Shown here: one piece after another, positions 52-64,000 of the stretch
How positions within the stretch are numbered: the first letter of the stretch is position 1
Layout: each line of letters starts with the position of its first letter
Origin: Loripinus fragilis
Taxonomy: Eukaryota; Mollusca; Bivalvia; Lucinida; Lucinidae
Direction of reading: 5' to 3'
DNA length: 64,000 nucleotides
Assembly: GCA_964019695.1 (NCBI GenBank)
Contig: OZ026527.1
Span: 71,945,471-72,009,470, forward strand
The notes under the pieces: generated by a model
Databases searched by the model: none
The model's input: only the letters and a program-made list of their open reading frames with translations
What the model was told of the DNA's origin: nothing
Position numbers and translations under genes: made by a program

Positions 52-249
52 CATTTGGACATGTTGCATCAACTGGTGAAATGCAACTGACATTGTTGGT
101 AGCTAATTCCCCCGCCCAGAATGTTCCATGTGAACACACCCTCTTTGTCCCATGGAAACCAATATTTGTCCACTCGCATGTTAGATATGTCACACAATCA
201 CTGGCAAATGGCAACTGACAAAACACAGAATAGCATTTCTCTGTACAGT
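52..249 (-). CDS. Exon A6: eight-cysteine ChtBD2-like domain, cassette 6
   Basis: This 198 bp exon has an acceptor ending TTTTTTCAG and a donor GTATGG. It encodes CTEKCYSVFCQLPFASDC, VTYLTCEWTNIGFHGTK, VCSHGTFWAGELATNNVSC with an N-V-S sequon, and ends DATCPNG. The C-P-H-G motif is C-S-H-G. It is the last exon in view; C6 and B6 would lie beyond the left edge of the window. Confidence 0.87.
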
Positions 250-3200
250 CTGAAAAAATATCATAAAAATGATTTGTTGATTGCATGCTTGGTAATTTTT
301 CATGATTTTTACTTTTTCAAAAAAATCTTTCATATATACTATTGAAGTGTCTCAACTGTTTGGTTCCAGATCAGGACCAACAGGAAAAGGTTATCAGGAG
401 ACAACAAAAGTCAAAATTTTGAGTCTCAATATAGTAAACAATTCAATGTCATAAAGCAAACATCATCAGCTAAATTCTACTTTAACATTAAGGCAGTCAT
501 AAGATTCATAGCAAAGCATTCCTCAATATTTTGTGACAAGCTTATTAACAGTTCATCTGATATTTAAACCTCAAAAGCAGCTGAGCCTAAACTAAGTTGT
601 AGAAGAACGATAGTTTCATTAATTGATTAAACGAAAATGTATGCTTAATTATTTAACTAAAAGATCAAAGATACTTGAAAGAGCAAATCAAAAAATCAAA
701 TATCCCATCAATGACGAAAAATAAACGCTGGTGAGTAAATACGCATTATGTAATTTTAGTTTCACATTATCAAAGCTATGTCAATATTATGGTTTAAACT
801 TGTTATGGATAGAGAGTCTTATAGAAGAAAGTGTAAGGGTCCTGTCATGAGAAAGCATTACCCCTGTAACCGACCAAGTAAGACTTAAGCACGCTCGCTC
901 AGCTATATAGACTATCTGATTTTTTTTAACTTGCATGAAGCAAATTTAGATTTTAAATTTTTCGATAAGACGATAACAAAGGTGCTGATCAGATGCGCAG
1001 GCTGTACTGCATCTCTGTTTTCCACATGTTACAAAGTCATGTTTTCTAATGAGAAGACCAATATAGAGTACAGTATCATAAGCACTATAGGGTAAACGCG
1101 CAACTGGTATGCTAATTACATATCATACTGATCTTATTTACAGTCTAGTCTTTAAGGGTTTGTATTAGGATGTTTTGCTAATGCATATTGATACATGTAT
1201 GGGACTAGTCCATTGTGTAATTAAAGGGGTCACAGATAGAATTTTTTAAATGATGATGTCTTTCTGTCCCTGGAGGTTGTTTCAATCTTAGCAAACAGTG
1301 CAGACCCTGATAAAATGCAGCATTATGCTGCATTTCATCTGGGACTTCACTGTTTGCCAAAGTACCCAATTAGGGATTTCCAGTATACAAATGATTAATG
1401 GGTCAATAGTTGTACTAAACTAATTTAACTATTTGAATTTAATACACATAAAGAAGCTGCACTTACTTCCATTCATCCAGATTTGTTCTTGAGAGTGTGA
1501 CGCTGTATGAAAAGACAACTTTATTTATAAGAGAAATGACGACAACATTCTTATGCATTAAATCAAAAGCAAGATAGATGAGTGTAAATAGTTCATTTTA
1601 TGTCAGCCGCAAAGAAAATTTTGGTATTTATTAAATTTGCAAGCTGTCATAAATCATAGCCTTTGCTGCTCACAAACACCAATTTTGGAGGTAGTTGAAG
1701 GCTTTCATTGACCTCTAGCAACACTAGAGTGATGCGTATGCATATTAACTCTTTGTATTTGAAAACAGTAAAACCCTAGATGATATACAGTATAACGCTG
1801 CATTAAATCAGGGTCTGCACTATTTGTAAAGGTAAAAGCGATCTTTAGACAAAAGAATAAAAGAAAATTAACTATAACCTGACATCCCTATATATGTATA
1901 TGGAATGTTGCTAGGATATTGTATCAAACTAGAAGGAAGAATCCATTTTATATAAAGGGTTAAAAGTTGATTTACACATGTTTGATGGGTGCCAAAATCT
2001 CATTACCTGACTCAGTTGTACTACAGGTATGGATAAAAAGTCACATCTTAGAAAAGTAAATGCATCAGGCTAAATATTTTTTTCGTATTCAATCTTACCT
2101 GGTTCATAGCCAGATGGGCAACTTTCATAACATGGTGTTATTTTATCATCCTCGCACATCTTCGACGTCAGGCTGAAACGATATCCTTCAGGACAGCAAG
2201 TTGGTTTAGGCTGTCCATTCGTGCATTTCCAATAAGTACCACAATGTTTGTCAGTGACAGGCTCATCTTGTAGACATATATCTAGAGACAAATAGCATAC
2301 ATAGATGATCATACATATAAGTACCACAATGTTTGTCAGTGACAGGCTCATCTTGTAGACATATATCTAGAGACAAATAGTATACATAGATGATCATACA
2401 TATAAGTACCACAATGTTTGTCAGTGACAGGCTCATCTTGTAGACATATATCTAGAGACAAATAGCATACATAGATGATCATACATATAAGTACCACAAT
2501 GTTTGTCAGTGACAGGCTCATCTTGTAGACATATATCTAGAGACAAATAGTATACATAGATGTCAGTGACAGGCTCATCTTGTAGACATATATCTAGAGA
2601 CAAATAGCACACATAGATGTCAGAGACAGGCTCATCTTGTAGACATATATCTAGAGACAAATAGCACACATAGATGTCAGTGACAGGCTCATCTTGTAGA
2701 CATATATCTAGAGACAAATAGCAATAAGTACCACAATGTTTGTCAGTGACAGGCTCATCTTGTAGACATATATCTAGAGACAAATAGCACACATAGATCA
2801 TCATACATAAGTACCACAATGTTTGTCAGTGACAGGCTCATCTTGTAGACATACATCTAGAGACAAATAGCATACATAGATGATCATACATAAGTACCAC
2901 AATGTTTGTCAGTGACAGGCTCATCTTGTAGACATATATCTGGAGACAAATAGTACACATAGATGATCATACAATAAGTACCACAATGTTTGTCAGTGAC
3001 AGGCTCATCTTGTAGACATATATCTAGAGACAAATAGCATACATAGATGATCATACATAAGTACCACAATGTTTGTCAGTGACAGGCTCATCTTGTAGAC
3101 ATATATCTAGAGACAAATAGCAATAAGTACCACAATGTTTGTCAGTGACAGGCTCATCTTGTAGACATATATCTAGAGACAAATAGCAATAAGTACCACA

Positions 3201-6200
3201 ATGTTTGTCAGCGACAGGCTCATCTTGTAGACATATATCTAGAGACAAATAGCACACATAGATGTCAGTGACAGGCTCATCTTGTAGACATATATCTGGA
3301 GACAAATAGCACACATAGATGATCATACATAAGTACCACAATGTTTGTCAGTGACAGGCTCATCTTGTAGACATATATCTAGAGACAAATAGCAATAAGT
3401 ACCACAATGTTTGTCAGTGACAGGCTCATCTTGTAGACATATATCTAGAGACAAATAGCAATAAGTACCACAATGTTTGTCAGCGACAGGCTCATCTTGT
3501 AGACATATATCTAGAGACAAATAGCACACATAGATGTCAGTGACAGGCTCATCTTGTAGACATATATCTGGAGACAAATAGCACACATAGATGATCATAC
3601 ATAAGTACCACAATGTTTGTCAGTGACAGGCTCATCTTGTAGACATATATCTAGAGACAAATAGCACACATAGATGATCATACATATAAGTACCACAATG
3701 TTTGTCAGTGACAGGCTCATCTTGTAGACATATATCTAGAGACAAATAGCACACATAGATGATCATACATATAAGTACCACAATGTTTGTCAGTGACAGG
3801 CTCATCTTGTAGACATATATCTAGAGACAAATAGCATACATAGATTATCATACATATAAGTACCACAATGTTTGTCAGTGACAGGCTCATCTTGTAGACA
3901 TATATCTAGAGACAAATAGCAATAAGTACCACAATGTTTGTCAGTGACAGGCTCATCTTGTAGACATATATCTAGAGACAAATAGCAATAAGTACCACAA
4001 TGTTTGTCAGTGACAGGCTCATCTTGTAGACATATATCTAGAGACAAATAGCACACATAGATGTCAGTGACAGGCTCATCTTGTAGACATATATCTGGAG
4101 ACAAATAGCACACATAGATGATCATACATAAGTACCACAATGTTTGTCAGTGACAGGCTCATCTTGTAGACATATATCTAGAGACAAATAGCACACATAG
4201 ATGATCATACATAAGTACCACAATGTTTGTCAGTGACAGGCTCATCTTGTAGACATATATCTAGAGACAAATAGCACACATAGATGATCATACATATAAG
4301 TACCACAATGTTTATCAGTGACAGGCTCATCTTGTAGACATATATCTAGAGACAAATAGCATACATAGATGATCATACATATAAGTACCACAATGTTTGT
4401 CAGTGACAGGCTCATCTTGTAGACATATATCTAGAGACAAATAGCACACATAGATGATCATACATATAAGTACCACAATGTTTGTCAGTGACAGGCTCAT
4501 CTTGTAGACATATATCTAGAGACAAATAGCATACATAGATGATCATACATATAAGTACAACAATGTTTGTCAGTGACAGGCTCATCTTGTAGACATATAT
4601 CTAGAGACAAACGAGCCAGTGCATGTGATTTCCAACAATTTGACATTTTGACAAGTGTAGACTCAGATGAGCCTGTGCAGCCTCCTTTTAAGTTTAGAAA
4701 CTCCAAATGACGTTCGGTCAGTAGCTTAACACTCATAAAATACTCAAGCGACTAGCAAAGACTCTGATCAGACTGCGCGTATGCGCAGGCTGGTCTGAGG
4801 CTTTGCTGGTCGCACATACCAAATTGTTGGAAATCTCATGCACTGGCTCAAATAGCATACATAGATGCTCATACACGTGTACTCACGTTTAATTGAATTT
4901 ATTAAAATAGTTTAGGTGAAGAGATAAAATGTGAGGCTTGCCAACAATTTATCTTTTTTGGCAATCAATTTAATAAATTCGATAGTACAGGAACAGGAAT
5001 GTTAGTTCCAATTTATCACATGAGTTTGTCATCTTTAATGCAACATTATCAGGGATGACATATCTTAACGTTACTAAACCTGTAGACCACTAGTGGTTTA
5101 TCGATTTTTATGCACATTGCTATATTACTCCCATCCGCGACGTTTATGATAAAATAAGGCATTTGAAGTTAGCTTTATTTCATTGCAAGAAAGTAAAAAA
5201 AAATAGCATAATATGTCATTTTTACAAGAGTTTATCTACCAAACATATCATGGATTATAGATTGCACTCGTTATGTTATAAGTTTGTTAGTGTTGATGCT
5301 GTGCTTAACAGTCAACATTCGTTAGTCATATTGAAATGATTTTCTTCTTCCTGTGTAGAAACAGTACAAAGCAGTGGATAAAATGTCTTGCTCAAGGACG
5401 AACAGAAATTTATCCTGCGAGTCTCATGCTAAGAACAATTCCATCCCCTGTCTAATGCCCTACCAACTGAGCCACTGCAAACCGCAACGAAAATTGATTA
5501 ATTGTAATGTGCACTCATAGAATAGAGTGAATATCCCAAGCATGCTTCATGTAGACAATGGAAAGCTCTGATTATATAAGGCAGATACAAGGACCAGGTT
5601 GATGCATTTGTGCTACTACATCAGTCATTGTTTTAATTTAGAATTGGCAAGATGCATACGGCTTAAAGGACAAAATAACACAAGTGAATTAAAAGTGAAT
5701 TTTCACATGTATTTTTATATACATGTATGCTGTATGGAAACTAAAATAATAATAAATTTCATGGGAACTTTGGTTAGCTATCCTTACTAATACTTTTAGG
5801 CCAGTATTTGCATTCCTCCAAATATTCATGTTTAGGTGCTCAATTGAGGTGCCTCAAGATAAAGTGGCACTTAAAAAATGTAGCTGAATAAAATACATCT
5901 TAATATGAGCCATGACATGAGATTTCCAACAATGTGGTATATGCGACCAGCAAAGCCTCAGATCAGCCTGCGTATATGCGCAGTCTGATCAGAGCCTTTG
6001 CTAGTCGCTTGAATATTCTATGAGTGTTAAGCTACTGGCTGAACACCATTTGGAATTTCTAAGCTTCAATAGGAGGCTGCATAGGCTCGTCTGAGTCTAT
6101 ACTTGCAAAATGTCACATTGTTGGAGATCACATGTCACGGCTCATATATGGATCTTGACGCCAGAAAACCTGTCTTCCCGGTTTGCGAACAACACAGGTG

Positions 6201-9200
6201 CAGACCAGCCTGCGCATACGCGCAGTCTGATCAGCTCCTTTGTTATTCACGTTTTGTAAAGTACCATATTTAAGCTTGCTACAAGCGAAATTTCATTTTT
6301 CTAGCTAGTCTCTGTAGCTGAGCAGGCTGGTTTGAATCTCACTTTGCCGGAAACCCCAAAGACAGGTTTTGTCGCGTTGAGGCCCGTATGTTTTCATGTA
6401 CATGTAAGTACCTGGTACAGAAGTGTTGTCACATTCCTCAGGAAGACAAGGACTATCTTTCTGAAACTCACATTCGCCAGTTGTTGCATTGTACCTCTCG
6501 AGCCCTGGACAGCACTTTGGAACTGATGTCCTATCCTCACACTCCCAGTGTTTCTTACAACTTTGGAAATGGGGATATGTAATCCCTATATTTGTGGGAT
6601 TTCTACATGGATCTGAAACAACATGTTGTATTTTTTTAACCGTCTATACCATAAAAGGGAGTCATTAAGCCAGCAAATGGGAAAAGTGTGCCTATTAATA
6701 CTGCACAAAATCCCTTAAACTTCTCTGTTCTTGCTAACTGCGACATTTGTCATTTACTAATAACATTTGCAAACAGTTCGATCCAGGTCAGGACCAAGAG
6801 AACCTCAGTCCTGATCTGGATCTAAACCGTTTGGCACTCTGATAGTATTCATGACATATTTTAAATATGTGCTTAAAATGTCAGCAGACAACAGCAAAAC
6901 CATGAAAAATTACCAAGCATGCAAATTGATAGACGTATGTGAAAGGCTTTCCAGTGTACTCAGAAGTCATATATTTAGCCAGAGCCCTAAGAGCAAAGTC
7001 TGATTATCGCCTTTGTTATATGCTTTCTTGTAGGTGCAGTTATCAAACGTATTATAAAGCAATATTCTAGGTAATCTCTTGATCTAAACAAAATAGTCTT
7101 GCATAGATGGAAACCAGTAAGACAGATTTTCTTATGATGATGCCTATATACACATTTTTAAGATGATGTGTGCATCGGTAGTACATAAGCTATCAAAAAT
7201 ATGTAAGCACTGAAAAAAGTGTTTATTTATGCTTTGCTACAAAAATGGCAATACATTTACAAAGCCATATTTTTTTCCTTTTAAGCGATTTTAACAGTTC
7301 TGATATGTTAAAATATAAGTGAAATTAATATACTCAACAGAAAAAGTTAAGGAAAATGCGTTTGAGAGCCTATGACTAAAGATCTAAAACATTTAAAGAC
7401 TTTTGAATTTCACAATAGTATATTGTGACCATTTTTCTTGATAATGACACTTTATCTGGGTTTGTAGCGTCCATAGCAGCTTAGTAAATCTATGTCAAAG
7501 TTGACTGGTCTTCACTCCATTTTTCGCAAAAATTCAATTTAAGGAGCAAACATAGGTTTTCATACATTAACATTCGCCAGGTCCCTTGGGAGATGGAGAT
7601 GTTTAAAACCTAGGACGACAGAACTGGTTGTTATAGAGGGACACCTGATCAGTCAAGTGTACATTGGATGAGGTGTTGAGGTCTGTTGTCCTGCCTTATT
7701 GTGCGAAAACCAGTGACAGTACCAGGCCTAGGATGACAATGTCAGAACACACCTCACTAGAATCAGCAAAACAATGTTGTGCCCATTGACTGGACAGTTC
7801 GCTCATCAGACATGTCTACAATTTTAACAGATCTATGACATTTTTGGACAGAGGGTCCAACGCATAATAATGGCATCAAAAAACCGCCAGCCTCTCGATG
7901 CAGTGTTGCAGGAGATATTGATGCTGATCCCTCAGCACCAAACCACCAGTATTCAGAGTATGCGAAACTGGTGCTAGTCCTAATTTGCCGCTGACTTGGG
8001 ACACACTCGTTACTGATGAAGGCATTTTCATCTTCAAAATGTGATGTTAAAGGCTATCAAGTTAATTTTATGTGACATTCAAAGGAATTGCATTTCGAGT
8101 TATGAACTGACATGCTTTTCATGTGTTTATGAGGGAATACTCTGTAGTCATTTTTGCGAAAAATGACTTTGACCCCTGGGTTACTTGACACTTTGCCACA
8201 ACAAAGGTACTGGTGCTAGCAAACTAAAGTAAACATTTTTCCTAACCGATGACATGTATCTAAACAAATAAATAAAAATTGAATAATTGTTGGCTTTGGT
8301 GTTCTCATGTTGCATGGTTTTCTGAGATTTCCTTAACTTTTTTGTTGAGTATAATTTAATTTACCTTGTCCGATGTGCATTTGATCAGTTGTAGTTAATC
8401 ATAAATTTTCATGAAGGACAACAAAAGTGTTTAAAATGAAATGGGCCTCAACGCAATAAAACCTGCCTTCTGGAGTTTGCGAACAACACAGGCGCAGACC
8501 AGCCTGCGCATCCGCGCAGTCTGATCAGCGCCTTTGTTATTCGTTTTTTGGAAAGTATCATATGTAAACTTGCTTCAGGTAAAATTTCAATTTCTTGCTA
8601 GTCTCTGTAGCTGAGGAGACTGGTTTGAAACTCGCTTTGTCAGAAACCCAGAAGACAAGTTTTCTCGCAACGAGGTCCATTTATGCTTTGCTACAAAAAT
8701 GGCAATACATGTACAAAACCGGTTATGTTATTATATAAGTGAAATTAATAATTTGATTTACCTTATCCGATGTGCATTTGATCAGTTGTAGTTAGTCATA
8801 AATTTTCATTAAGGACAACAAAAGTGGTTAAAATGAAATACTATTGATTACTGTCGTGCCAGCCAAAAGTGACAGTGACGTAATATTTTGTTCACAATGG
8901 ACAAGTAAAACATTAACTAGACACTCAACTTGGGCTAACGCGAATCGATAGATCACGTGTGTATTAATCCTATCCTATGGATAGGATTAATACACAAGTG
9001 ATATATCTACTCTAAGGCTCTGATAACGTTATAAACAAAACATGGCGTCATTGTCACTCTTGGCTGGCAGGATAGTACCTCTTCGACACCTTGCTTCAGC
9101 TGGTAGAACACAACTATTGGTCCTGTTTGCCAGGTTTCGTGCAAAGAATCTACCATGTGGACACACCATCTTTGTTCCATGGAATCCATTGTTTGTCCAC

Positions 9201-12200
9201 TCACATATGAGATATGTCATGCAGTCACTACCAAAGGGCAACTGGCAGAAGTTAGCATTACATTTCGATGAACAATCTAAAATGAAGTGTAATGGCAAAT
9301 ATAAGAATGCAAGGATTACTTAATTAATGATCATTTTTGATATAGGTAATAGAAGGCAATTTTTTTCACGGTAGATCTAGGAAGGTAAAGTTTAATGCCC
9401 GATATATGAGCAGTTCCTTATGCCGATAATAGTGTGATAACTGTATTTAAAATGGTCCATTAGGGAAGTTTATTACCAGATAAAGGGTATGCAATTTAGT
9501 TTTCTGCAATTTGTGAGTAGAGCAGAAAAAGCTTATTTCCAACCATATATCCTATAATTAACCTCTCCAAACAAAAAATTTGAGCATATTTGTCCCATTG
9601 CAATGCACATGTAACATTTATCTAAAAATGTACAAACTTGTACTTGCTGTCAGTGGCTACCAACAGCATGGAACTACTTACAGGCCAATGAAAATAAATG
9701 TTACTTAATGGTGTCAAGCTCCAGACAAATAGTCACAGGATTAACTTTAAAAATGGTTTACGTTAACCTATGGAATTGTGCATTGCTTTCCTATGTGCAC
9801 TATATTTCAAAATTTAATTATGTGTTATTGTATGGGTTGTACATATTGGAAGACCGACTGGTTTGATGCATGCTTGAATAATAGTAGAAATGATTATATA
9901 AGCCATCAAATGTATTACAAGTATTCAAATTTATCAGTATAAAGTAAATTAAGTGTACTGTGTTATTTGATTTTACCAATAACTGAGTCAAATTGATTCT
10001 TTACTTGTAAATTTTTTATATCGTCGATCTGGAGTCAAAAACTCGTATCTTTGATTTTTACATTTTTCAGGAGAAACAAAAAACTAAATAACTTTTGCTA
10101 GGAGCGACCTTTATTGCTGAAAATCAGACAGGATTATGTTTAGTAACATCCAAATTCACCCTTATTGGTGTTTTGAACTTCCAATTAAGATTTTATGAAG
10201 ATTATGAAGAGTTTCACTTGAGTTACGTCATTTTGACCATTTTTTTGTAAAAAACACCCAGTTACGACATTTTAAGCATCTTTTGCATGGCAAAACCTTG
10301 TATCTTGGCAAAATGAGCACAAAAATAATGACATTTTCATAGATACGATATATTGAATCATGATTAATGCTTTTTAAGGGGATTATAATTAGTCTAGAGC
10401 TACGAGAATTTGACAGAATGTGTGCCATGCGTTTGGTATTCCCGCTTTGACAAAAAGCTGTTTTGGTAAAAATCAGAGTTACGAGGTTTTGACTCCAGAC
10501 CGACGATATGTCTTCAATTTCACATTTTACCCTTAACGCATACGTATAATGCATCTGAAAATGATGTCTGCTCACACCGTCTGCTCACACCAATATAGTG
10601 GGTAAACAATATTAACAGGTTTTACTGTAGAGGTAAACAGTGCAGACTCACGGACCACTCTGATTTGTTTCTTCACTATTTAACTGAGAGGCTCCTAAAA
10701 TAGTTCAGCAAATGACAAAAATCTATACTTACTTGCATTTAGCCAGATTTGTTTTTGGGAAATTCCTGTTGAAAACGAAAATAAAAGAAATGAAAAAAGT
10801 CAATAAGCAATGCTTATTAGATACTCCCGGCACAGTAAGGAAAGGGCACAGTAAGGAAAGGTGAAAAACTTACGTTTTGGCAAGCGATAGTTCAAACCAG
10901 CAGACCTTAGTTTTGAAAACAAGATTTCAGTAGAATATGTGCAATAATTTTAGACCATTTGTCAAATACAAGAAATTATTCATACCCGAAAGCTCTATAT
11001 ATCAAAGCTTATATCAGAAAAATAGTATATCAAACTTATATCGGAAAAATAGTCCAAGTTCTCATAGATGTCATTTTATCAAAAATTATTTTTCCAAACC
11101 AAACTCCTTCATGCATATGTTTAATGTGTCTATATTGTATAGGCAACATATCAAATTGCTCCATTTAAAGCTGTAGTAGGAGTTGATCGGTCCATGAAGG
11201 CACTATCTATGCATATACAATAGCATTGTTAGGGGAACTTGTCTAAGCTCTAACAGCTGTAATTTTGTCAAAATATATTTTTTCAAACCAAACTCCTTCA
11301 TGCGTATGTTCAATATGTGTACATTGTAACAGCAAAGTATCAAATTGCTCCATTAAAAGCCGCGGTAGGAGTTGGTTGGCCCATGAAGGCACTATCCATT
11401 CATATACAAAAGCCATATAAGGGAAAAGTTGTCTCAGTTCTCATAGCTGACATTTTGTCAAAAATCTTTTTTTAACCAAACTTCATCATGCATGTGTTCC
11501 AATCGTCTAGATTGTATAGGCAAAGTATCAGTATCAAATTGTTCAATCAAAAGCTGTGGTAGGAGTTGATCGGTCCATGAAGGCACTATCAATGCATATA
11601 CAAAAACCTTATTAGGAAAAATTGTCTAAGTCTCGCAGCTGTCATTTTGTCAAAAAATATTTTTTCTGACCCAAACACCTTCATGCATATGCTCAATGCG
11701 TCTACATTTTATAGGCAATGTATCAATTTTTTCTATTAAAAAGCTGTGGTAGGAGTTGATCGGTCCATGAAGGCACTATCAATGCATATACAAAAGCCTT
11801 ATTATGGAAAAATTGTCTTAGTTCTCGCAGCTGTCATTTTGTCAAAAATATTTTTTCTGAACCAAACTCCTACATGCATATGTTCAATGTGTCTGCAATT
11901 TATAAGCAAAGTATCAAATTGTTCCATCAAAAGCTGTGGTAGAATTTGATCAGCTCATGAAGGCTCAATCAATGCTTATAAAAAAGCACTATTAGGGAAA
12001 ATCCTCTAAGATCTCACAGCTGTCATTTTGTCAAAAATTATTTTTTCTGAACCAAACTTCCTCATGCATATGTTTAATGTGTCTACATAGCATATGAATG
12101 GTATCAAATTGTTCCATCAAACGCTGTTGTGGTAGGAGTTGACTGGCCCGTGTATGGACTATAATAGCATAAGCATAAAACCATTTATAAAAAAACGTTT

Positions 12201-15200
12201 AGAACTACAAAGGTAGATAACTCCCATAGAATTAGCCACTAGCCCTTGCTTTTTTGTTTTCAGTATTTGTCTTGCATATATTAACATGTTTGCAAGGTTT
12301 GATGAAAATCCAGCAATGACTCTTCAAGTTATTAAGGAAACAAAACGTTACAGACAGTAGCACAGAGGGGAGGACGCACGCATCGCCAGCCAGAAAAAAG
12401 TATACACACCACAAACGAAGTTTGCGGGGGTAAAATTAATGCTACACTCACCATTTCAGAAACTAAGCGAACACATTAGATAATGCTGTGCATTTCATAT
12501 GCTCAAAAGCGCTCATTAACACTTTTGCTGTTAAGAAATAATGCCTTTCATATGTTTTTTATTTAATTCTTAAAGTGTAATAATTGCGTTAGGAAGGCAC
12601 CATATAATAAATGAATTTCTGGAGTTAGGCCATTTGTAGCATAAGCATTACAGCTTGTAGTTAGGACCTTTAAGTTTATGTTAACAGTTGAATTCTACTT
12701 TATTCAACTTCTATCAGTTGTTCTGTGGTCAAAAGTACCTTGTTGAACTGATCCCTTGAACTTTTGGTCGCTAGGAAAGTGTATCCGAAGAATTGTAAGT
12801 GAGTATGATCAGGAAATACCACAATCACAAACTGCAGACAACCCCGTGGCATTGTAAGGAAAAGCCACACAACAATCACGAGACACCAGGAAGACAAACA
12901 AAGCAAAGCAACCTGATCTCTCTTCCCCATCAAGATGATTGCAAAACTAGATATGACATAAAGTAACAAAAAAAAAAACATAGAACAAATACATAATCGC
13001 ACAATGGGAAGCACAATCAACAACAAATCAACAACCACTGCCTTAGAACGGACAGCAGCCAAAGTCACTGGAGGGGGGCTTAAATGCATTTTACTGGTAC
13101 CAAATCTTCGCCCCACATTCTGCTGTTGTTGAAGCACAAACTTTTAAGCTTGCAAGGAGGAGTCCTAACTATTGCAATGCATCATCATGGAGAAACAATA
13201 TAACCAATTAAATGCGCTATGATGAAACAGAGAAAAGGGCTCACGACTTTCAGCTAGTCAGATGTAAAGAAAACCTAAAGTTGAGCCATGGAGGGCCCAG
13301 CTACAGCCAAGCATCAGGCACCAACCCATCGATTAAAGTTTTGAGTCAGAACCGTCATTGAGTTTGAGGCCTAAACCACCGTCGTGCCATTAAAAGAGGA
13401 AACCATAGCTATAAACCGTGATTAGGATTACAAACAGGCATGCAGACTGTCTCATGATACCCAAATTATATCCAACTATTTTATAACGTTTGATAATCTT
13501 TTTGAACTGATCACTAAAATTAGGTTTTCCAACAATTATTTTGAATTTATAGACAAAATCACCATAAAATTTAGGTTATGATATGCCCTGTTGCAGAAGA
13601 ATTTTTTAAACCTATAATGTTTATAATAATTAATTTTGAGTGTCTGTGGTAGAATTTAGAACATGCTTTTCGAATTTTATGACCTTGTTTTAATATCTAA
13701 GCTGTCAAAAATAGATTTCTGTTAGTGAGGTCATCAACATAAGAACACATTCTTGCAAAACAAATAAGTTGCAAAATATATTCACCATAGGAAGGAGAGC
13801 GAGGAATATCTCCATCAAGAAATGGGAAATTAACTATTTTAAAATTTAAATCATCCGGCTTATCATAAATCTTAGATGAAACTCTTCCATTCGTAATAGA
13901 CAAGTCCAAGTCCAAAACGGGGCTTCATTATCAGCAGAATTCGCTTTATTTAACTGAAGTTTTTGGGGCTATTGCTGACCTAGCATATGTTCAAAATAAG
14001 AATTATCAATATTAAGTAAGTTATCTAAACATCTGGAGGTGGATTTAAAAGCTTTAATAATATCAGTTTGATTATTGTCTGACAGAGACAACATGAAGTC
14101 TCTCTCATAACAAAACAAACACATCTTCAACAAGAGGAGCACAATTAGTACCCATTGGAATACCTGCAATTTGTCTATATGATTTTGAGCCAAATCTTAT
14201 GAAGATATTGTCCAAAAGATAATGGAGAGCATCTTTGGACATACATACTTTGCTTGGGGCCCAGTATAGCTGTATTGCAGTAAAGATCAGGAAAGGCACA
14301 TTTATAGTAAACCAGGAGTACACTTACCAGGTGTGTAGCCTGGTGGACAAGGATCACCACATGTATTCAAAAGATCTTCTTCACAATTCTTTGTCACTCT
14401 GTTGAATCTCTGACCAGGACTGCAACAAGTTAAGGCTGGTTGACCAGCCTCACAATTCCAAAATGTAAGGCAGTTGTTGTCATTGACAGGTTCTTTTCTC
14501 AGACATATATCTAAAACAGTAAATTGACAAAGGTAGTTTACACAATTCAAACACAGAAGGACTTATTAAGGTGTGTCGATAGATATGTGTGTAGTCTTAT
14601 GAAAAATCAAGTGCGCTACATATTAAACTTATAAAAAAAAAATTCAAACCATTTAACCAATCTAGCACTACTCAAGCAATGTGAATACAGGTTTTAAAAA
14701 AGTTAAATGCGTATGTGATTATTGCCAGATTTATATGAAACTAGTAGATGCATTACCAGTAAAACGCAAAACACAGATCACAGATTAACTCACGACCCAG
14801 AAATAGAGAATACTAGGTGAGCGTCTTTTGATATCAAAGTAAGTAAGGGTGCAAAGATCAGGAATCGATACAATCAAGTACCACACCTGACCCAGGATAC
14901 CAATGGGAAAGTGACAAACTCACAGCAGACACCACAAACGAGAGCCAAGAGGTCAGCCCTTTCCCAGTAGGTGACCACAAAGCACATATTAACAGACGCA
15001 ACACAAAGACATAGCAAACACAAGACAGAACAAAAACATAAAATATCCACAAAAGAAGTACCGCCTTGGAACGGTCAGTAAAATATTTTACTGAAGAGCT
15101 TAAACCAGTTTAACAGAAAGTTTACCAGGCAAGACTTTGAGAATGCTTATTGACATTTCGAGGCCTGCTGAGATATAGAGAATACTAGGTGAGTGTCTTT

Positions 15201-18094: not shown

Positions 18095-18139
<45 letters not shown>

Positions 18140-36061: not shown

Positions 36062-36120
<59 letters not shown>

Positions 36121-48100: not shown

Positions 48101-51100
48101 GGGCTCTAGTTATCAAAGAGTATGCATAGTTTGCGTTTCTTTTTGTACAGACTGTAGATATGTCTGGGCTGTCAGTTATCTCTGAATCTTTACTGCAAAT
48201 AATGGTTACCTCTCTTTGACAGTCTATGGTGAATTTGAGAGCAACGCAAGGTCTTGATTTTATTCAACAATTTGAGAAAGCATAGGCTTTTTATATCAAA
48301 GGGTGAGAAAGACCTGTTGAATTATACTAAGGGCAAGAGTAAAATATTTTCTCTGTTTTGAGGTCCATGGAAAATTGATACAGGCTCATTACCTTAAAAT
48401 GTTAACGCCTATATCAAAAGTACTGTTATCTAATAGACTGTTCTAAATAGACTATATATTGAGTGATAATTTATTCTAGATTATAACTACAGTTTTCAGC
48501 TTTACGTTTATGTTCATTCTGAAAACATTGTAAATTGATTAACCTCAAAACTATTTTGAATTTATCATGGAAGTATTTGTTTGTTATTTTTGAAAGTGTT
48601 TCAAGAGGTTTCAAATGAATGAGGACATAAACAGATATGTTCGAAAATGTAGACTACCCAAATGTTCTATATATTTACTTTAATTGTGTTATATACCTCT
48701 GTTGACATTTGTACAGATATTTTTTCTGTGTTGGTTTACAGAAGGGAATTACAAAGTGGCAGTTGTACTGTTTTTTGTATACATAGCTTCTACCGTTTTT
48801 CATCTTTTTTACCAGATTGTGACTTAGTGGTGCTTAAAAATGTGGATTATTATCGAAATTGCACATAATTCGCTATTATTTTGGTTGAGAACGTCTAGCG
48901 CAGATGATTTTGCTTTAATGAGTGCAGTGAGATAAAGCGCTTACATTCAATATAAAATTATAAAGTGAGCTTAAGAAATAACATTTTTTATATAAAGTGA
49001 CCAATTATAAGAGGATTTGTTTATCATATTAATATTTTAACCAGGGTTTCAGAGTTTCAGGTTTTAAAGGGACAATTATTCCATTTTAAAATGTGACATC
49101 GTCAAGAACGTCCCCATTAATTTACATTAACATTGGTTCAAATATATATTGCTGCCATAAAATTTGAATTGCAGGGGTTATATGTCATTATCTGATCAGA
49201 TAGTTTACTTACTATTTCCTAAGAGTTGGTTGAGTGTCCTGAATGGCGTTTAAATAGTTTAAGAGTTTATAGTATACGACAAACTGTTGACATATTTTAA
49301 AATCATCAAGCAATTGCAAAAGCAAATGCTTTTACAATTGTCATTAATCATCAAATACGAAACATAAGATACCGTAAAATGGAATATTTTCGCGTCGCCA
49401 AATTTTTGCGTTTTTGCCTAAAATCATGAGTATAAATATTCGCGGTTTTTAATTTTTGCGGTAGTTTGTACCCACGAAATTATAACTGCAATTCAAATGG
49501 TCTGCGAAATGTCTGAAGTATAAGTTTAGTTTCTCAATCTAGGTGCTTTCAGTATTTCATCTGGATGATGAATCGTAGTTTCTCGTTGTTATTAAGTTGT
49601 ACCTAGTACAAAGAATAGCTGTGCATGTGTCTTTTTCTCTCCAAAAAACTAACACTTTTTTCGTAGGGTTTATTTAATAATTATGTGAACACGCTTGAAA
49701 GTAAATTATAGATATTTAACAAAATATGTGAACACATACTGACAATCACTGGTCCAAGTCTGAATAAATGATCAGGTGTATTTAAGGGTAATTAATCAAT
49801 TATCTTTCCAGCTTGTCCAAGCGGTCTATTGTACAACGGTTGAACGCTCACGAGCATGGCCTTGATTGACTTATTCATGTTCAATGAACAGTAAGCATGT
49901 AGGTTGACCTGTAAACTACGCTGGTCAGTCTATGAAAAAAGGTGTTTTTTAACACAAATGAATACACAATTATTGTTCTGTATAAAGGCAAATAAACAAT
50001 TGGTCCAACTTGGAAAATATTTTGCAGATTTTAATTTTCACAGTTCACGACATACCGCGAAATACCGCGAAAATTGGACGACACAAAAATTTCCCATTTT
50101 ATGGTAGATAAAATGGCTATGATAAATATACTTACAAGATTTCTAAAGCATATCATTTGTAGTTCCTGATTTATGGCAGCTATGATTGATACATGAATAG
50201 ATAGACTTATATATTCATAGTAAACATAAAACACAATATGCTTTATTATCTTGAAGGAGTATCTGAGTGTAATGACTTACCACTAAGGCATGATACTTGA
50301 TCTGCGGGAAGACAGCTTAGAGTTCTATTTGACAACTCTCTGGCAAAAAACTTTCCATGGGCACATATATGTCTTTTGCCCATGTATCCAGATGGTGTCA
50401 GTTCACACCAGATATATTGTCTACAATCTGCGTCATCAGCGAATTGACAGAAATCAGCATTACAGTTGAGGGTGCAGTCTGAAAAATAACCCATAAATGA
50501 ACGCATCATAAAAGCCATATATGAATTCCAAAATGGCATTTTTTATTATAATCTAGCTGATTAGGAGCCTTTTATCGCTTACCTTGTAAAGAGGACATGT
50601 TGGATGCATCCCCTAATTTTCCAGTCTGTCTGATAAGGATTTTCAGCCAAGGCCTCATTGCCATATTACCTTAGCTGAAGTTGGCTTTAGTGGGACGTTA
50701 AGAAATAACACACATATATATACTGTCTGATTAATAACACCCTACAAAATAATCAGACATAGCATATTATTTACATCATTTTAACAAAATAAATGTCATA
50801 GTTTCTCTCTTTGTAAGCACCATATAAAGTGTACTATCAATTTACTAATTTAAAGAATCTAACATTCGTGCTCTTGTATTATTGAATTTATTAAACTCGC
50901 TGCAAAAAGTGATAAAATGCTCAGCAAGCCTCGCATTTTATCTCTTTTCCCCAACTCGTTTAATAAATTCAATAAAACATAAGCACCCATGTAAGATTCT
51001 CTATATATTACAAACTTAACAGGAAATTACCATTTTTCATCAAGCGCATAAACTCTATAATTTTTTTTAGGTTTTAAAAAATTTATCTCCTCTGGGGGAT

Positions 51101-54100: not shown

Positions 54101-57100
54101 TAACCATTTCTTCATTTTAGATTTCGCAGTTATAAAACACAAACATGAACTTTGTTATCCTGCATGAGGGTTTCAACTGTATCACTGTATCATCACTGAG
54201 ATCAATTAAATCGAAATAACTTAATGTGATAAAACAAAGAGAAGAGTTCATAACAAACTAGAGCTAAAGAAGATCTTGTTTAATACATGTAGTTGTATGC
54301 TACATAAAAAGCAATGTAATTGACTTCTAGAAGATGCTAAGAATCATCTCATCTTATAGTTATCTTATCTTTGCAAGAGACTTAAACATATACTTACTGG
54401 CATTTAACCATTTCTGTTCTTCAGTTAAAGCTGAAAAATACAGAAAAAAAAATCAAATACAGTAGAAGTATCAAAATACTTTACTAACTCAAATATTTCA
54501 ACATATTTGCTCTTCACCATTTTATTCAAAACTTTTGAAATGTAATCCAATCTTTTGATTTTTGTACATTATGATGGCAATGGGTGGTAATCGGGCCTCC
54601 ATAAAGAAAATGAATACCAAGTTCTACAAAATGGAACATCATCATGCTCATAAATGTTAAAATGCCAATAATTGTTGGTATTTAAACATTCATTAGCATG
54701 GTAAATACGAAATTTGAGTGTTTGAATTCTAGAAAAGTCTTTATCGCATGACGTCGCGTCTGGGAGTGAAATAACGCCATGTAATAAAATCGATAAACCA
54801 CTTGTGGTTTACAGATGATCCGGAAACGTTATGACGTCCATAACAACGTTGCGTTCATAGTGACAAAATTGTAACAATTTTACGGCAGAAATGAGATTTC
54901 AAAGTAATCTTAATGCCATATGATAAATAGAATCTAACATGATTGTTCCTGTTTTATTGAATTTATTAAACTCTTTGCCAAAAAGAGAAAAAATTGCTTG
55001 GCAAGCCGTGCATTTTATCTTTTTTCCCAAACTCGTTTACTAAATTCAATAAACCATGAGCACTAATGTAAGATCCTCTATTTATTTTTCGTAGTACCTT
55101 GGGTATGCGCAGTTACACCTTTATATTCAGTTAAAGTGAGCATTACGAAGTTTAATAACCTCAGCTTTGGGCTTGTCTTATCTGTCTAAACACTAAGGAT
55201 AAATATAAGCGCGGATCTGAGAAAAGGGTCCTCAAGACATTCCAGCAGTTATTATATAATATACATTTGAAAAACGCCTAAAAATGACAAAAATTTCACA
55301 TGCTTTTATATTACCACGACAATATTCTTATCGCTTGATGTCATCAAAGTAAGTAAGGGTGCAAAGATCAGGAATCGATACAATCAAGTACCACACCTGA
55401 CCCAGGATACCAATGGGAAAGTGACAAACTCACAGTTAGACACCACAAACGAGAGCCAAGAGGTCAGCACTTTCCCAGCAGGTGACCACAACGACATATA
55501 AACAGACGCGCACAAAGACATAGCATACACAAGACAGAATAAACTATAAAAGATCCACAAAAGAAGTACTGCCTTGGAGTGGTCAGTAAAATATTTTACT
55601 AGAGGGCTTAAACCAGTTTAACGGCACCAACCTCATCCTTAATTCAGATGTGGATCAAGACACGGAGATATTTTGTTTGCATAAAAGACCCCTAACTTAC
55701 CCATGCATCATCTCCTAAAACATATATACTCAGCGTCAATGAAAAGTTACCAGTATCGAAAATTCCATATTTCGGAAAATATATAATACAGCTCTTTGGC
55801 TACAGTTATGCTCAAGTTTCTGGTCAACGACAAGCTGTGTTGGAGAGATAAAACAGTAACACGAGCCCTGGAACTATGATGCACGTGATGCACGTGCATT
55901 TTATGTTTTTTCGCAGTTTTTAAGAATTTGAAATCATCATTTTCAGGAGACAACATGCCAGGATATGCCCAAGACATTTTTATTGAAAACGCCACCAAAA
56001 TGGTTTAGATTATCCCATTAAACGCGAAAAATGAGGATCAAACTTTAAGGTAGCAAAACAACTTTGCATTTTCCTATACAATGCAATGGAAACTACAGGG
56101 GTCAATCAAGGAATGATTATAATGCATCCGGATGGAATGGATACTGTTTTCCATAGTGGTGATGCATGGGACTCTATGCCATTAAATTGAGTGTTGATGT
56201 ATCCGCCGTTCTACGTTCAGAATGGACTAAATATTGTCCTATGTTAAGTATATGTGATTTACTGGTAACTTTTCACTGACGTTGAGTATAAATCAAGATA
56301 AAACAAGGAGCTAAAGCAAAGATAAGGACTCAAAGTAGCAAATGTTTCAGATTATAGTTAAAGTGTTGTATGTTGCCTGTTGCCATGGTAACAATTAGAC
56401 CATAACAGATACAAGGGCTCATATTGAAGAGTGGGCCACTTTAATTACCTATAAAACAAATAAGAAGGTATAAATTCATACATTCTTATTTGCATTTACT
56501 TAACAACATAGATAACGCTTGTGAATATATTATATTTGTTAGATGTTTATACTCAGTCAAAAATAACCAACAAGCAACTGGAGACCAGCTCTTTTTGACG
56601 TGACATTCCAAACCTGACTACATATGTTGCTTCAAACCTCAATAAATTCGTCAATATTAAAGATTACCACTTCAAATTTTCAGGAAATGCTCTTAAGAGT
56701 TAGTACTTTGCAGCTGCAACATTAGCTAGATTTTGATAGACACAACCATAATTAAGGTACCTGTTGTCATATACTGACCCATATACATTAAGTATACACA
56801 AACTTTACATTTTCAGCATAAATAAATACATTACATTTATCAATTTTATAATTAGACAATTGTTTACTTATGTTTGTGTACGCATGAAGTGTAATTAAAA
56901 CTTAATCATACTGGCCTGCTGCTTTTGTTTGGCCATGTGTATTTTACTGTATTAATCAATGTCCACCACAGAATAAATTAATATCGTATATTACACGAAA
57001 ACATTAAACTATGGATGACTTTTCATTGTAGGTTTGTGTCTAAGGTTTGCATGTAGCCTACATCTACTGTAATAATTTGTATATGAAAGCAGTATTTTTT

Positions 57101-60100
57101 CATGTGAGACATGGATGTTAAGGCGTGTTTGAATCTTAACTCCTAATCAATGTTTCATTTTACCGTCTTATGTAATTTATGCATTGCAGTAATATGCTAT
57201 TGCAGTAAACATTATCAATAGAATGGAAATATTTTTCTGGCATGCATGCAGATCATTCAGAACCAAAATGAAAGACAGTTCTTTTCCAATACTATCCAAT
57301 GACTTGTAAAATCTACTGTAAAAACGTAATACATGTATTTGGGAAATAATGAAGACCTACTTAGTTTATAGCCTGCAGGACAACCATCAAGGCATGGCGT
57401 AACTGGATCTTCAACACATGCATGCAGTGTATTATCAAAGCGTAGTCCATGTTGACAGCAAGTTGGTACTGGCAAGCCATTTTCACAGGTCCAGTATGTA
57501 TTGCAGTGGTGGTCAGTCACAGGTTCATTTTTCAGGCAAATATCTGAAATTATAAAAAACAGAGCATACTTAAAACTTTTCAGGAAGCAGCGTATTATTT
57601 TGTTTTCACTAGAATAAAATATCAGTGTATACACTGTATGTCCAATAGTCAGAATAAGCAAATGTCACTCATGTAGAGTAGTCTTTTCACTTAACAGAGG
57701 AACAGATATTTTGCCTTTTGGCCAATTAAAGCAATGCAATTCTTGAAAAAAAAAAAACAATTGTTTTACAAATATTAAATGTGGTAATGCAAAGAAATAT
57801 ATTTATAGTTTTTCTTATCTGTAGCTGGGTCTACCGTAGCTCAATTTGAGGATTTTTTATCTCTGACTGTCTGTGAGTCGTGAGCCCCTTTCTTTGTTTC
57901 ATCATAGTGTTTTAATTTGATTAGAGTGTTTCTCCATGATAATACATTGCAATTTTTAGAAGGCTTCCATGCGAGCTGAACGTTTCTTTCGCTTCAACAA
58001 CAACAGAATCTAGGGCGAAGATTTAATACCATTAAAATTCATTAAAGCCTCCTGGTGGCTTAGGCTGCTGTCCGCTCTAAGGTGTTGGCTCTGTTGTTGT
58101 TGACTTGTTGTTAGTGTTACTCTTATTGTGGGAGTCTGTAATTATTATATGTTTTTGTACGTTACATTATGTCCATTCTAGTTTGCAATCATCTTGATGG
58201 GGAAGAGAGAGCTGGTTGTTTTTCTTAGTTTGTCTTCATGGTGTCTCATGTTTGTTCTGTGGCCCTTCCTTATGGTGCCATGGGTTTGTCTGCAGTTTGT
58301 GATTGTGGTATTTCCTGATCAAACTTCCTTACTATTTGTGGTAAAAAGAGAACTAATTAAAATAGGCTTGTAATCACAATTATATGTTAGAGACCAAGAG
58401 GTAGCCAGTTTGAGCTACCTCTTAGCATAAAAAGTGTCTGTTCAGATAGACATAATGTTGTTTGAATGCTGCTTTGAAATAAATTTCATTGCTTCCATTC
58501 ATTTTAACTAGATTCAAAATAATTAAGTAGGCATTTATTGCTATTCTCACGATGTTGCTCTTTTTAAATAATAATGTCATTTTATGTAAAATGTAGACAG
58601 TTTTATGTCTGTGTGGGAGATACTACATGCATGTGTAAATTATTAAATGACTAAGAAATGTTAGGTAATTATATATATGAGCCAGCATACTCGCCAGCGT
58701 TATCGTTGCTAGCATACACAAAAGGTGAAAAACAATATAAAAAAAGTTCCGACAAATTATCAAATGTTAACCACGCTTCACATTTCCAAATTTAGTGTTT
58801 AATTGTTCCATATTTATCGCATGACACCGTGTCTGGGAGTGATACAACCCCATATAATAAAACTGATAAATAATTACTTATAACCTTTATGTAATGACTT
58901 CAATAACAATGCCATGTATATAATGACACATTTAATACAGAAAATGAAATTAGAAAGTAATTTTGATGCCATATGGTAAATATAATCTACCATTCGTTAT
59001 TCAACACGTTGTGAAAAATGATAAACTGTCCAGCAAGTCTCTTATTTGATCTCGTTTCCCCAACTTGTTTAAAAAATCAATAAAACATGAGCACTCATGC
59101 AAGGATCTCTGTTTATATCATGCTTGAAATATGGTATAAACGATCTCCTCAAATTGTGGTACATTTGGCATAGGTGACCAGACAAAGCTCAGGTTCAGAG
59201 GTCTCTCCTCATTTTATGTACACAGAATGATAGAAGATCACATGTCCAGATGCGCAACTTTTGGTGTGAAGTCTTTTCTAATACATTAGTTTAAACAGGT
59301 ATTATGGGAGCTCAACAAAACATGGCATTATGACGGTTTTGTTAAGTACCCACAAAATATATTTTAGTTGACAAATAGTAAACCATTTTAAATAAGGCTT
59401 AATTACTTGAGGTCTTGAAGATGAAGTTTCAAACCATTGACTTGATACTTAGCCTGACTTGATAGCTGTTAAAAACACATTGCTTAACGCATGAACAAAC
59501 ATTGCTTAACGCATATATATACAATAATAACGAGTATCGCCTATATTCTCTCTTGTAAATTGGGCTGAGAAAAAACATTTTGGAAAATACATCGTATTAT
59601 CTTTTAAGTATTCCATTGCATATTATATGTTAAGTGTTAAGTGTTAATGTGTTAAGTTGAATTGTTACCTGGAATAAGCGTGGCGTCACATTCGTGTGGT
59701 GAACAAGGTTTGTCTCTGTTATAATCACAGTCTCCTTTGCTGGCATTATAATGTTCGAAACCTATACAGCATCTTGGCACGGATGTTCCTCCCTCACAGT
59801 GCCAATATTGTTTACAGTTTCCAAAATGAGAATAGGTCATGCCTTCATTGGTTGGGTTGGCGCATACATCTAAAAGAAAACAACAAAGCATGTCATAAAT
59901 GATATGTCAAATATATATTTCTAGGTTAACTCAGTGTAGATATTTTTCTAATGCACATTTCATCAGATGTAGCCGCAGTTTGTATTAGACAGAGAATTGT
60001 GGAGACATGGCTGAGTTTAAGAGCGCTGTTTAAGACTCAGCAATTTTCATGCAACCAATTTAATCCCGGGGATTTGTATTCAATTTCTTCCAACAAAAGG

Positions 60101-63780: not shown

Positions 63781-64000
63781 AGCACTAAAACTCATGTTTC
63801 AAGTGATAGGTAAGGAAATAAATGCAATTTATGGTGCACAGACTATCCTTATCTGGACCTATGATAAAAGGCTATCTATAGATAATGCAAAAAAAGGTTC
63901 TTACATTGTTCGTAGTCGCTGGGACATTGTTCATTGCATGGGATTAAAGGGTCCTCCTCACATCGTCTTGTCGTCGTATTGAAACTCTCACCAATGGGAC

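What the first reader, a model, noticed from the sequence alone, without database searches (positions are those of the whole stretch)
52..62485. Strict four-exon cassette (L-A-C-B) repeated six times in one minus-strand gene
Twenty-two exons of four types occur in an unbroken L-A-C-B order over 62 kb, with A always 198 bp, C 201 bp, B 183 bp and L 33 or 36 bp. Duplication therefore acted on whole four-exon blocks, introns included, rather than on single domains. The result is a roughly 206-residue protein repeat made of three different eight-cysteine domains plus a linker. I do not recognise a described gene with this architecture.
Basis: partly seen in the sequence, partly recalled or inferred. 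Interest (0 to 1): 0.88.

Follow-up and report, generated by a model that had tools for sequence, protein, structure and literature searches.

The report
Tenfold-repeated chitin-binding-domain gene cassette
An animal gene, probably from a mollusc, appears to code for a very long secreted protein built by repeating one four-exon block of three cysteine-rich chitin-binding-type domains, and the gene next to it seems to carry the same block only once, which may show how such giant matrix proteins grow.

Summary
All 22 exons, minus strand, in L-A-C-B order, check base for base. Each is phase 1-1 and the joined frame has no stop. The window holds five complete cassettes plus L6-A6, and part of a 23rd exon, B0, at its edge. 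In the held genome the gene goes on at both sides: a predicted signal-peptide exon, A0-C0-B0, L-A-C-B nine times, and a divergent terminal domain: 41 exons, 135 kb, 2,170 residues, no stop. Tail exons follow. A neighbouring paralogue has one A-C-B cassette and the same tail in the part held. Exon lengths are constant only in middle cassettes. C and B are peritrophin-A (CBM14) domains with an extra cysteine pair; A is a remote relative, found only in this gene pair so far. Block duplication is supported. That introns were copied too is not shown; intron sequence has turned over. I judge it a secreted, multivalent polysaccharide-matrix protein, a new variant of multi-peritrophin matrix proteins. 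Function, transcript and species are untested. Exon B5 is preceded by 31 extra copies of its own splice acceptor.

The parts
63905..64000 (-). exon B0, 3' part, cut by the window end (whole exon G000:C16:72009375-72009563 with one of two possible tandem acceptors)
   Evidence: B profile hit E 4.3e-9; donor GTAAGA at 63904, phase 1; whole exon
62450..62485 (-). exon L1, 36 bp
60413..60610 (-). exon A1, 198 bp
59669..59869 (-). exon C1, 201 bp, CBM14-type
57361..57543 (-). exon B1, 183 bp, CBM14-type
54398..54430 (-). exon L2, 33 bp
50281..50478 (-). exon A2, 198 bp
   Evidence: near-identical copy P0003, 64 of 65
42056..42256 (-). exon C2, 201 bp
   Evidence: near-identical copy P0002, 60 of 64
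38344..38526 (-). exon B2, 183 bp
33814..33849 (-). exon L3, 36 bp
27894..28091 (-). exon A3, 198 bp
23721..23921 (-). exon C3, 201 bp; Pfam CBM_14 E 7e-6, above cut-off
   Evidence: near-identical copy P0001, 65 of 66
22963..23145 (-). exon B3, 183 bp; Pfam CBM_14 E 1.4e-5, above cut-off
20910..20945 (-). exon L4, 36 bp
19962..20159 (-). exon A4, 198 bp
16318..16518 (-). exon C4, 201 bp
14328..14510 (-). exon B4, 183 bp
10733..10765 (-). exon L5, 33 bp
9079..9276 (-). exon A5, 198 bp; Pfam CBM_14 only E 0.022, below cut-off
6412..6612 (-). exon C5, 201 bp
2282..4611 (-). tandem array: 31 extra copies of the end of the intron plus the first part of exon B5, acceptor AG kept in all 31; spacing 57-85 bp
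2099..2281 (-). exon B5, 183 bp; the only one of 32 similar acceptors whose reading stays open to the donor
1467..1502 (-). exon L6, 36 bp
52..249 (-). exon A6, 198 bp; gene continues into C6 outside the window

Best explanation
One gene on the minus strand codes for a secreted extracellular-matrix protein of at least 2,170 residues (SP to D; about 2,350 by adding the tail exons). It is a predicted signal peptide, ten cassettes of three eight-cysteine domains (30 peritrophin-type domains), a divergent terminal domain, and a tail that recalls laminin G to the eye. Seen in the sequence: exon order, phase, open frame, domain types, constraint, and a neighbouring paralogue with one cassette and the same tail in the part held. 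Inferred: each cassette is a three-headed polysaccharide-binding unit, most likely for chitin, set off by a conserved, perhaps glycosylated linker. The disulfide-locked string would act as a many-handed cross-linker of a chitinous layer such as shell matrix, periostracum, byssus or gut lining. The gene would have grown by unequal exchange or replication slippage copying whole blocks; because every internal exon is phase 1-1, gain or loss of any exon or block keeps the frame.
For: Exons, phases and open frame. Array continued in the held genome: A0-C0-B0 plus nine L-A-C-B, 41 exons SP to D. Signal-peptide-like first exon 2.5 kb before A0, AG|ATG, phase-1 donor. Pfam CBM_14 above cut-off on C3 and B3; 10 stretches in the first 1,344 residues, E 2e-41; 11 of 18 rows of a mixed alignment at E 0.01. 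A profile of all three types finds the three-domain protein EHEP of Aplysia kurodai, E 5.7e-13, 3 stretches. C spacing equals the published CX15CX5CX9CX12CX5-9C plus two extra cysteines in 10 of 11 copies, C8 having four extra (passages of PMC10619976). 9 of 10 database proteins found (P0009 is the window's own, P0006 is C0 of this genome) match one cassette exon at 60 of 64 or better; P0004 does not. Paralogue with cassette -1, D, E1, LG1, LG2 in the same order. Cassettes -1 and 9, the two just before D, pair at 91/86 or 89/86, and cassettes 3-7 group at 94/92 or 92/92. N-C-[S/T] at 9 of 9 L-A joins. Lottia shell proteins include one with 10 peritrophin-A domains, and doublet-cysteine domains in Pif/BMSP-like proteins (passages of PMC3374290).
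Against: No transcript or protein evidence. No binding test: EHEP, the best solved relative, does not bind chitin (passage). The A model was useless (pLDDT 38). The C model was weak (pLDDT 52) and its best structure matches, though CBM14 folds, had E 0.58 or worse. A is below Pfam's cut-off. B histories agree only weakly with A and C and B is not one group in the domain tree. Tree forks named here are all below the starred level. The signal-peptide exon is a prediction; the same scan found one distinct start outside the B5 array in the 64 kb window. Pfam found no family in the laminin-G-like tail. The last coding exon was not found; 200 N lie just past LG2.
Confidence: 0.6

Rival explanations
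1. Same gene, but the domains bind something other than chitin, as in EHEP of Aplysia: a soluble gut or mucus protein that traps plant phenolics or other ligands between the three domains of a cassette.
For: EHEP is the best solved relative, has three peritrophin-type domains in a triangle with tannic acid in the centre, and shows no chitin binding (passages of PMC10619976 and PMC5271319). A cassette too has three domains.
Against: EHEP has six-cysteine domains, is a single 229-residue unit and matches the C and B columns of the cassette profile, not A; the A profile alone finds no solved chain. Ten linked cassettes suit a matrix better than a soluble trap (inference).
Confidence: 0.2
2. Mucosal or immune barrier protein: many domains bind chitin or glycans of microbes or algae, and copies diverge to widen recognition.
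For: Cassettes 0-9 are only 36-60% identical, so they may differ in ligand; peritrophin-type domains occur in antimicrobial proteins (passages of PMC5271319).
Against: Third codon positions differ most and cysteine spacing is nearly fixed. Diversifying change was not tested for.
Confidence: 0.15
3. The exons belong to several neighbouring genes of one or a few cassettes each, not one long gene.
For: A neighbouring gene with one cassette exists upstream, so this family does form tandem genes; no transcript was seen.
Against: From SP to D every internal exon is phase 1-1 with no stop. A strict scan found no signal-peptide exon in the window introns; a looser one gave one distinct start outside the B5 array, in the A2-C2 intron, not at a B-L junction. 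The tail exons E1, LG1 and LG2 were found only after B9 and after B-1; the search compared the DNA after D with the DNA after D-1, not with the array itself. Profiles at the thresholds show D-like exons only after B9 and B-1.
Confidence: 0.05

Closest known systems
CBM14 / peritrophin-A (ChtBD2) domain, Pfam PF01607
   Same: C3 and B3 match above Pfam's cut-off; C keeps the canonical six-cysteine spacing
   Different: Two extra cysteines: one makes a CC doublet, the other follows the canonical last cysteine; B has mostly 10 instead of 15 residues in the first gap; A has longer gaps (16-5-13-16-7 in the common form, on my reading) and two extra cysteines in the first loop, and misses the cut-off
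EHEP of Aplysia kurodai (PDB 8in3)
   Same: Mollusc protein of three peritrophin-type domains; best solved-structure match of the joint profile
   Different: One unit, six cysteines a domain, no chitin binding reported; here ten units, eight cysteines, a linker exon and a tail
Pif/BMSP family of molluscan shell matrix proteins
   Same: Peritrophin-type domains incl. a form with an inserted cysteine doublet (passage of PMC3374290), with a laminin-G region after them (passages and section 12 of PMC11291548); here a tail after the array looks alike in order
   Different: No von Willebrand A motif found in 264 kb; likeness to the published laminin-G piece not significant and no Pfam hit; [quoted passage not shown]
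Multi-peritrophin shell proteins of Lottia, e.g. Lotgi1|231869
   Same: 10 peritrophin-A domains in two blocks in a shell protein (passage of PMC3374290)
   Different: No three-type cassette described in the passage seen; sequence not compared here
CPAP3 / obstructor proteins of arthropods
   Same: Three tandem ChtBD2 domains with small conserved linkers (passages of PMC3504105)
   Different: Six cysteines a domain and one triplet; here eight cysteines and ten triplets

Membership tests
CBM14 / peritrophin-A domain (C and B types) | Pfam PF01607 score above the curated cut-off | tested here: met
   C3 26.5 and B3 25.5 bits against 22.1; 10 stretches pass E 0.01 in the first 1,344 residues, which hold 12 C or B domains and 7 A
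CBM14 / peritrophin-A domain (A type) | Pfam PF01607 score above the curated cut-off | tested here: not met
   A3 no match at E 1; A5 15.3 bits; 4 of 8 A-type rows match at E up to 10, best 0.0027
CBM14 / peritrophin-A domain (C type) | Cysteine spacing CX15CX5CX9CX12CX5-9C | tested here: met
   11 of 11 C copies, last gap 7 in nine, 8 in C7, 6 in C9, counting the second C of the doublet. B differs in the first gap (10 in most, 9 in B6, 14 in B9); A does not fit
CBM14 / peritrophin-A domain | Binds chitin | not testable with these tools
   needs protein
CBM14 / peritrophin-A domain | CBM14 fold | tested here: inconclusive
   C model pLDDT 52; Foldseek ranks 1-6 are CBM14-type chains but E 0.58-1.9; A model useless; B not folded
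Pif/BMSP | N-terminal von Willebrand A domain | tested here: inconclusive
   no MIDAS-like motif on either strand in 264 kb; a motif of my own, not a profile, blind to split exons
Pif/BMSP | CBM_14 domain(s) | tested here: met
Pif/BMSP | Laminin-G region after the CBM_14 domains | tested here: inconclusive
   tail exons LG1, LG2 shared with the paralogue; no Pfam family; likeness to the published Pif LG piece reached by 298 and 1,678 of 5,000 shuffles
EHEP | Three six-cysteine peritrophin-type domains as a whole protein | tested here: not met
   eight cysteines a domain, 30 domains
CPAP3 / obstructor | Three six-cysteine ChtBD2 domains | tested here: not met

The most novel reading that the evidence does not exclude
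A lineage-restricted giant chitin-matrix protein whose length was set by repeated copying of a whole four-exon block inside one gene, with the single-cassette ancestor form still next door. The A domain would be a new eight-cysteine peritrophin-like subfamily tied to this gene pair, and L a linker micro-exon added with the expansion, carrying a glycosylation site made only by splicing. In addition, one exon (B5) is tuned or made skippable by a minisatellite of 31 competing copies of its own splice acceptor; skipping costs no frame.
Probability: 0.3. Interest if true: 0.7.

Novelty: new variant of a known kind. Interest (0 to 1): 0.5.

Why it matters
It shows a matrix-type protein that grew by copying a whole multi-exon block, with a presumed one-cassette form beside it, so before and after can be compared in one genome. 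It adds an eight-cysteine A domain that the main family library misses. If the protein binds chitin, about 30 domains in one chain would make a strong cross-linker for shells, threads or gut linings. The B5 acceptor array, if real, is a natural test of how the splicing machinery picks one site among 32 near-equal ones.

Tried and rejected
Separate genes: judged unlikely on phase, open frame and lack of internal start or tail exons; the looser start scan gave one distinct candidate outside the B5 array, in the A2-C2 intron. Intron homology: no signal beyond dispersed repeats. Full-length protein search: 984 candidates, none at E 0.001; the cassette profile gave 8 exon-sized hits among 305 candidates, the A profile 4 among 106, of which two were already in the query and one is the window's own; none has a name from its source. 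Bacterial, archaeal and viral collections, C profile only: 47 and 44 pattern matches, none a relative. Rfam: 0. Structure of A and C: too weak to use. The weak match to TGFBI/periostin (E 0.025-0.19) I took as chance. Organism from repeat words in print: 0 papers. An early note that the window lies on a 1.75 Mb contig is wrong for the held genome: it is on C16, 94.5 Mb; P0006 and P0009 carry that contig length in the protein database. A first joined tail for Pfam held intron letters and was redone; 0 families both times for the laminin-G-like part; of the two D exons, D-1 passes the CBM_14 cut-off and D does not. In one search B-1 and D-1 were cut at a nearer acceptor, which dropped the first cysteine of each; redone with the farther one: eight cysteines each, and the same two groups in the tree. 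P0004 fits no cassette closely (best 39 of 71) and is unplaced. Profile hits in the window at E 0.05-0.9 were dropped as noise. Rows left out before counts: L exons in both trees; flanks under 60 nt.

Full report
What is there. The minus strand of the window carries 22 complete exons in the order L1 A1 C1 B1 ... 22 of 22 have AG and GT borders and fit phase 1-1; joined they give 1,105 residues without a stop. Part of a 23rd exon, the end of B0, lies at 63905-64000 with a phase-1 donor. At E below 0.01 profiles of A, C and B find no further copy in the window on either strand, apart from partial B copies in a tandem array and cross-matches between C and B; a few hits at E 0.05-0.9 look like noise. 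The longest open stretch that is not one of these exons has 147 codons, so I see no sign of another gene in the window; splice-broken genes were not sought otherwise.

Is it more than chance. Cysteine spacing is the same in all copies of a type in the window (16 of 16 domains). The L motif with its donor is found 6 times, at the six L exons it was drawn from, and never in 100 shuffles. Third codon positions differ nearly twice as often as the others. Scores within types exceed all scores between types. Near-identical copies of C3, C2 and A2 exist in other sequence records (65 of 66, 60 of 64 and 64 of 65 residues).

The whole gene. The held genome places the window at C16:71945471-72009470 of a 1.99 Gb assembly. 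Flanks of 100 kb each show the array going on at both sides. My gene model runs from a signal-peptide-like exon (72024274-72024385, starting right after an AG) through A0-C0-B0, where no L was found, then L-A-C-B nine times, to a divergent domain exon D at 71888884-71889096: 41 exons, 135 kb, 2,170 residues, no stop, every internal exon a multiple of three. Outer exon borders were chosen by me among a few possible sites. Lengths are constant only in the middle: A is 198 in 7 of 10, C 201 in 7 of 10, B 183 in 7 of 10. After D come E1, LG1 and LG2. The end was not found; 200 N follow LG2. Of the ten database proteins found, P0009 is A6 and P0006 is C0 of this genome; P0010 matches A7 (61 of 62), P0005 C8 (73 of 74), P0007 and P0008 C0 (61 of 63 each); only P0004 is unplaced. 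Those matching C0 and C8 (P0007, P0005) share one longest-contig length, and A2, C3 and A7 (P0003, P0001, P0010) another. That fits one contiguous array in other assemblies; equal length is not proof of the same contig.

The neighbour. Upstream lies a paralogue with A-1, C-1, B-1, D-1, E1, LG1 and LG2 in the same order; its nearest exon, LG2, is some 62 kb from the signal-peptide exon. In 24.7 kb beyond A-1 no A, C, B or L copy was found and only one weak start candidate, so in the part held it has one cassette. Its cassette pairs with cassette 9, the one just before D in the long gene (91/86; 89/86 with the longer B-1), while cassettes 3-7 form a group (94/92; 92/92); no fork reaches the starred level. 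I read this as: an old gene with one cassette before D doubled, and one daughter then grew from the middle. Six further C/B-like exons with the CC doublet and one E1-like exon lie in the 30 kb fetched from C16:70.27-70.345 Mb, without A. In the whole genome a single A query found 9 matches at E 0.001, all in this array, and missed A0 and the paralogue's A-1, which the profile finds. A B query found 17: 10 in the array, 1 in the neighbour and 6 elsewhere. The tool says such counts are lower bounds.

What the domains are. C and B are CBM14 domains by Pfam (10 stretches in the first 1,344 residues). C has the canonical spacing plus a doublet and a last extra cysteine; I infer a fourth disulfide between these two. 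A is a remote relative: A and B profiles align at 20% probability and A and C at 2%, against 97% for C and B; Pfam stays below cut-off; yet its cysteines can be laid on the same plan with two extra in the first loop (inference). The joint profile finds EHEP of Aplysia best among solved structures; the A profile alone finds none. Structure prediction did not help.

How it most likely works. A secreted, disulfide-locked chain of 30 domains with 30 N-glycosylation motifs and 251 cysteines in 2,170 residues. The linker L ends so that its join with A makes N-C-S or N-C-T in 9 of 9 cassettes that have L; A0, without L, lacks it. Whether it is glycosylated, given that its middle residue is a cysteine, is open. 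I propose that each cassette grips a polysaccharide, most likely chitin, and that the chain cross-links a matrix. This rests on family knowledge, not on a test; EHEP itself does not bind chitin (passage).

Where it stands against what is known. A molluscan shell protein with ten peritrophin-A domains, and Pif/BMSP proteins with doublet-cysteine domains and a laminin-G part, are in print (passages; section 12 of PMC11291548). The tail here recalls the latter, but the laminin-G likeness is not significant and no von Willebrand A motif was found, so I do not file it there. A three-type cassette repeated ten times was not found in 8 literature searches. Papers seen: passages of PMC10619976, PMC5271319, PMC3504105 and PMC3374290, passages and section 12 of PMC11291548; all others only as search listings with the start of the abstract. 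Hence: new variant of a known kind.

A second point. Exon B5 is preceded by 31 further copies of its own acceptor, at 57-85 bp spacing, with 26-52 nt of exact exon start in 30 of 31 (one has a change at the third base); all 31 keep AG and 12-13 pyrimidines of 17. Reading from any of the 31 meets a stop after 17 to 112 codons; only the last of the 32 stays open. None of the other 21 exons has copies within 5 kb at up to 8 changes in 50. This may cost or regulate B5, whose loss would keep the frame; or it may be a neutral minisatellite or an assembly error. One literature search on such arrays brought no clear precedent among the 12 of 124 papers listed.

Noticed in passing
window 2232-4611: Minisatellite made of 31 extra copies of exon B5's own 3' splice site and exon start, upstream of the real acceptor; of 32 near-equal acceptors only the last reads open.
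   Followed up: partly
G000:C16:72086650-72104777: Neighbouring paralogue with a single A-C-B cassette and the same D-E1-LG1-LG2 tail; its 5' end was not found.
   Followed up: partly
G000:C16:70272001-70345000 (L031-L033): Six further exons of eight-cysteine doublet type and one E1-like exon (E 0.00077), no A type, in 30 kb fetched.
   Followed up: partly
joins of L1-L9 with A1-A9: N-C-[S/T] glycosylation motif created across the splice junction in 9 of 9 cassettes that have L; absent in A0, where no L was found.
   Followed up: partly
G000:C16:71927503-71927727 (C8): C8 is longer (225 bp) with ten cysteines and is followed by a 17 kb intron.
   Followed up: no
G000:C16:72036679-72057305: Long open stretches that read like pieces of LINE-type retrotransposons (recognised by eye) in the gap between the two genes.
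   Followed up: no
window introns, e.g. 52692-53490, 34964-37078, 11035-12142: Dispersed and tandem repeat families (units of about 165-190 bp) in introns, some shared among introns in both orientations.
   Followed up: no
G000:C16:72009563 region (B0 acceptor): Two in-frame acceptors 6 nt apart for exon B0, giving a possible two-residue splice variant.
   Followed up: no
C columns of cassette profile against PDB: Weak match to the N-terminal cysteine-rich part of TGFBI and periostin (E 0.025-0.19); probably chance.
   Followed up: no
P0004: A-type exon with a six-residue insert on a 990,927-base contig that matches no cassette of this genome closely (best 39 of 71); perhaps another species.
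   Followed up: no
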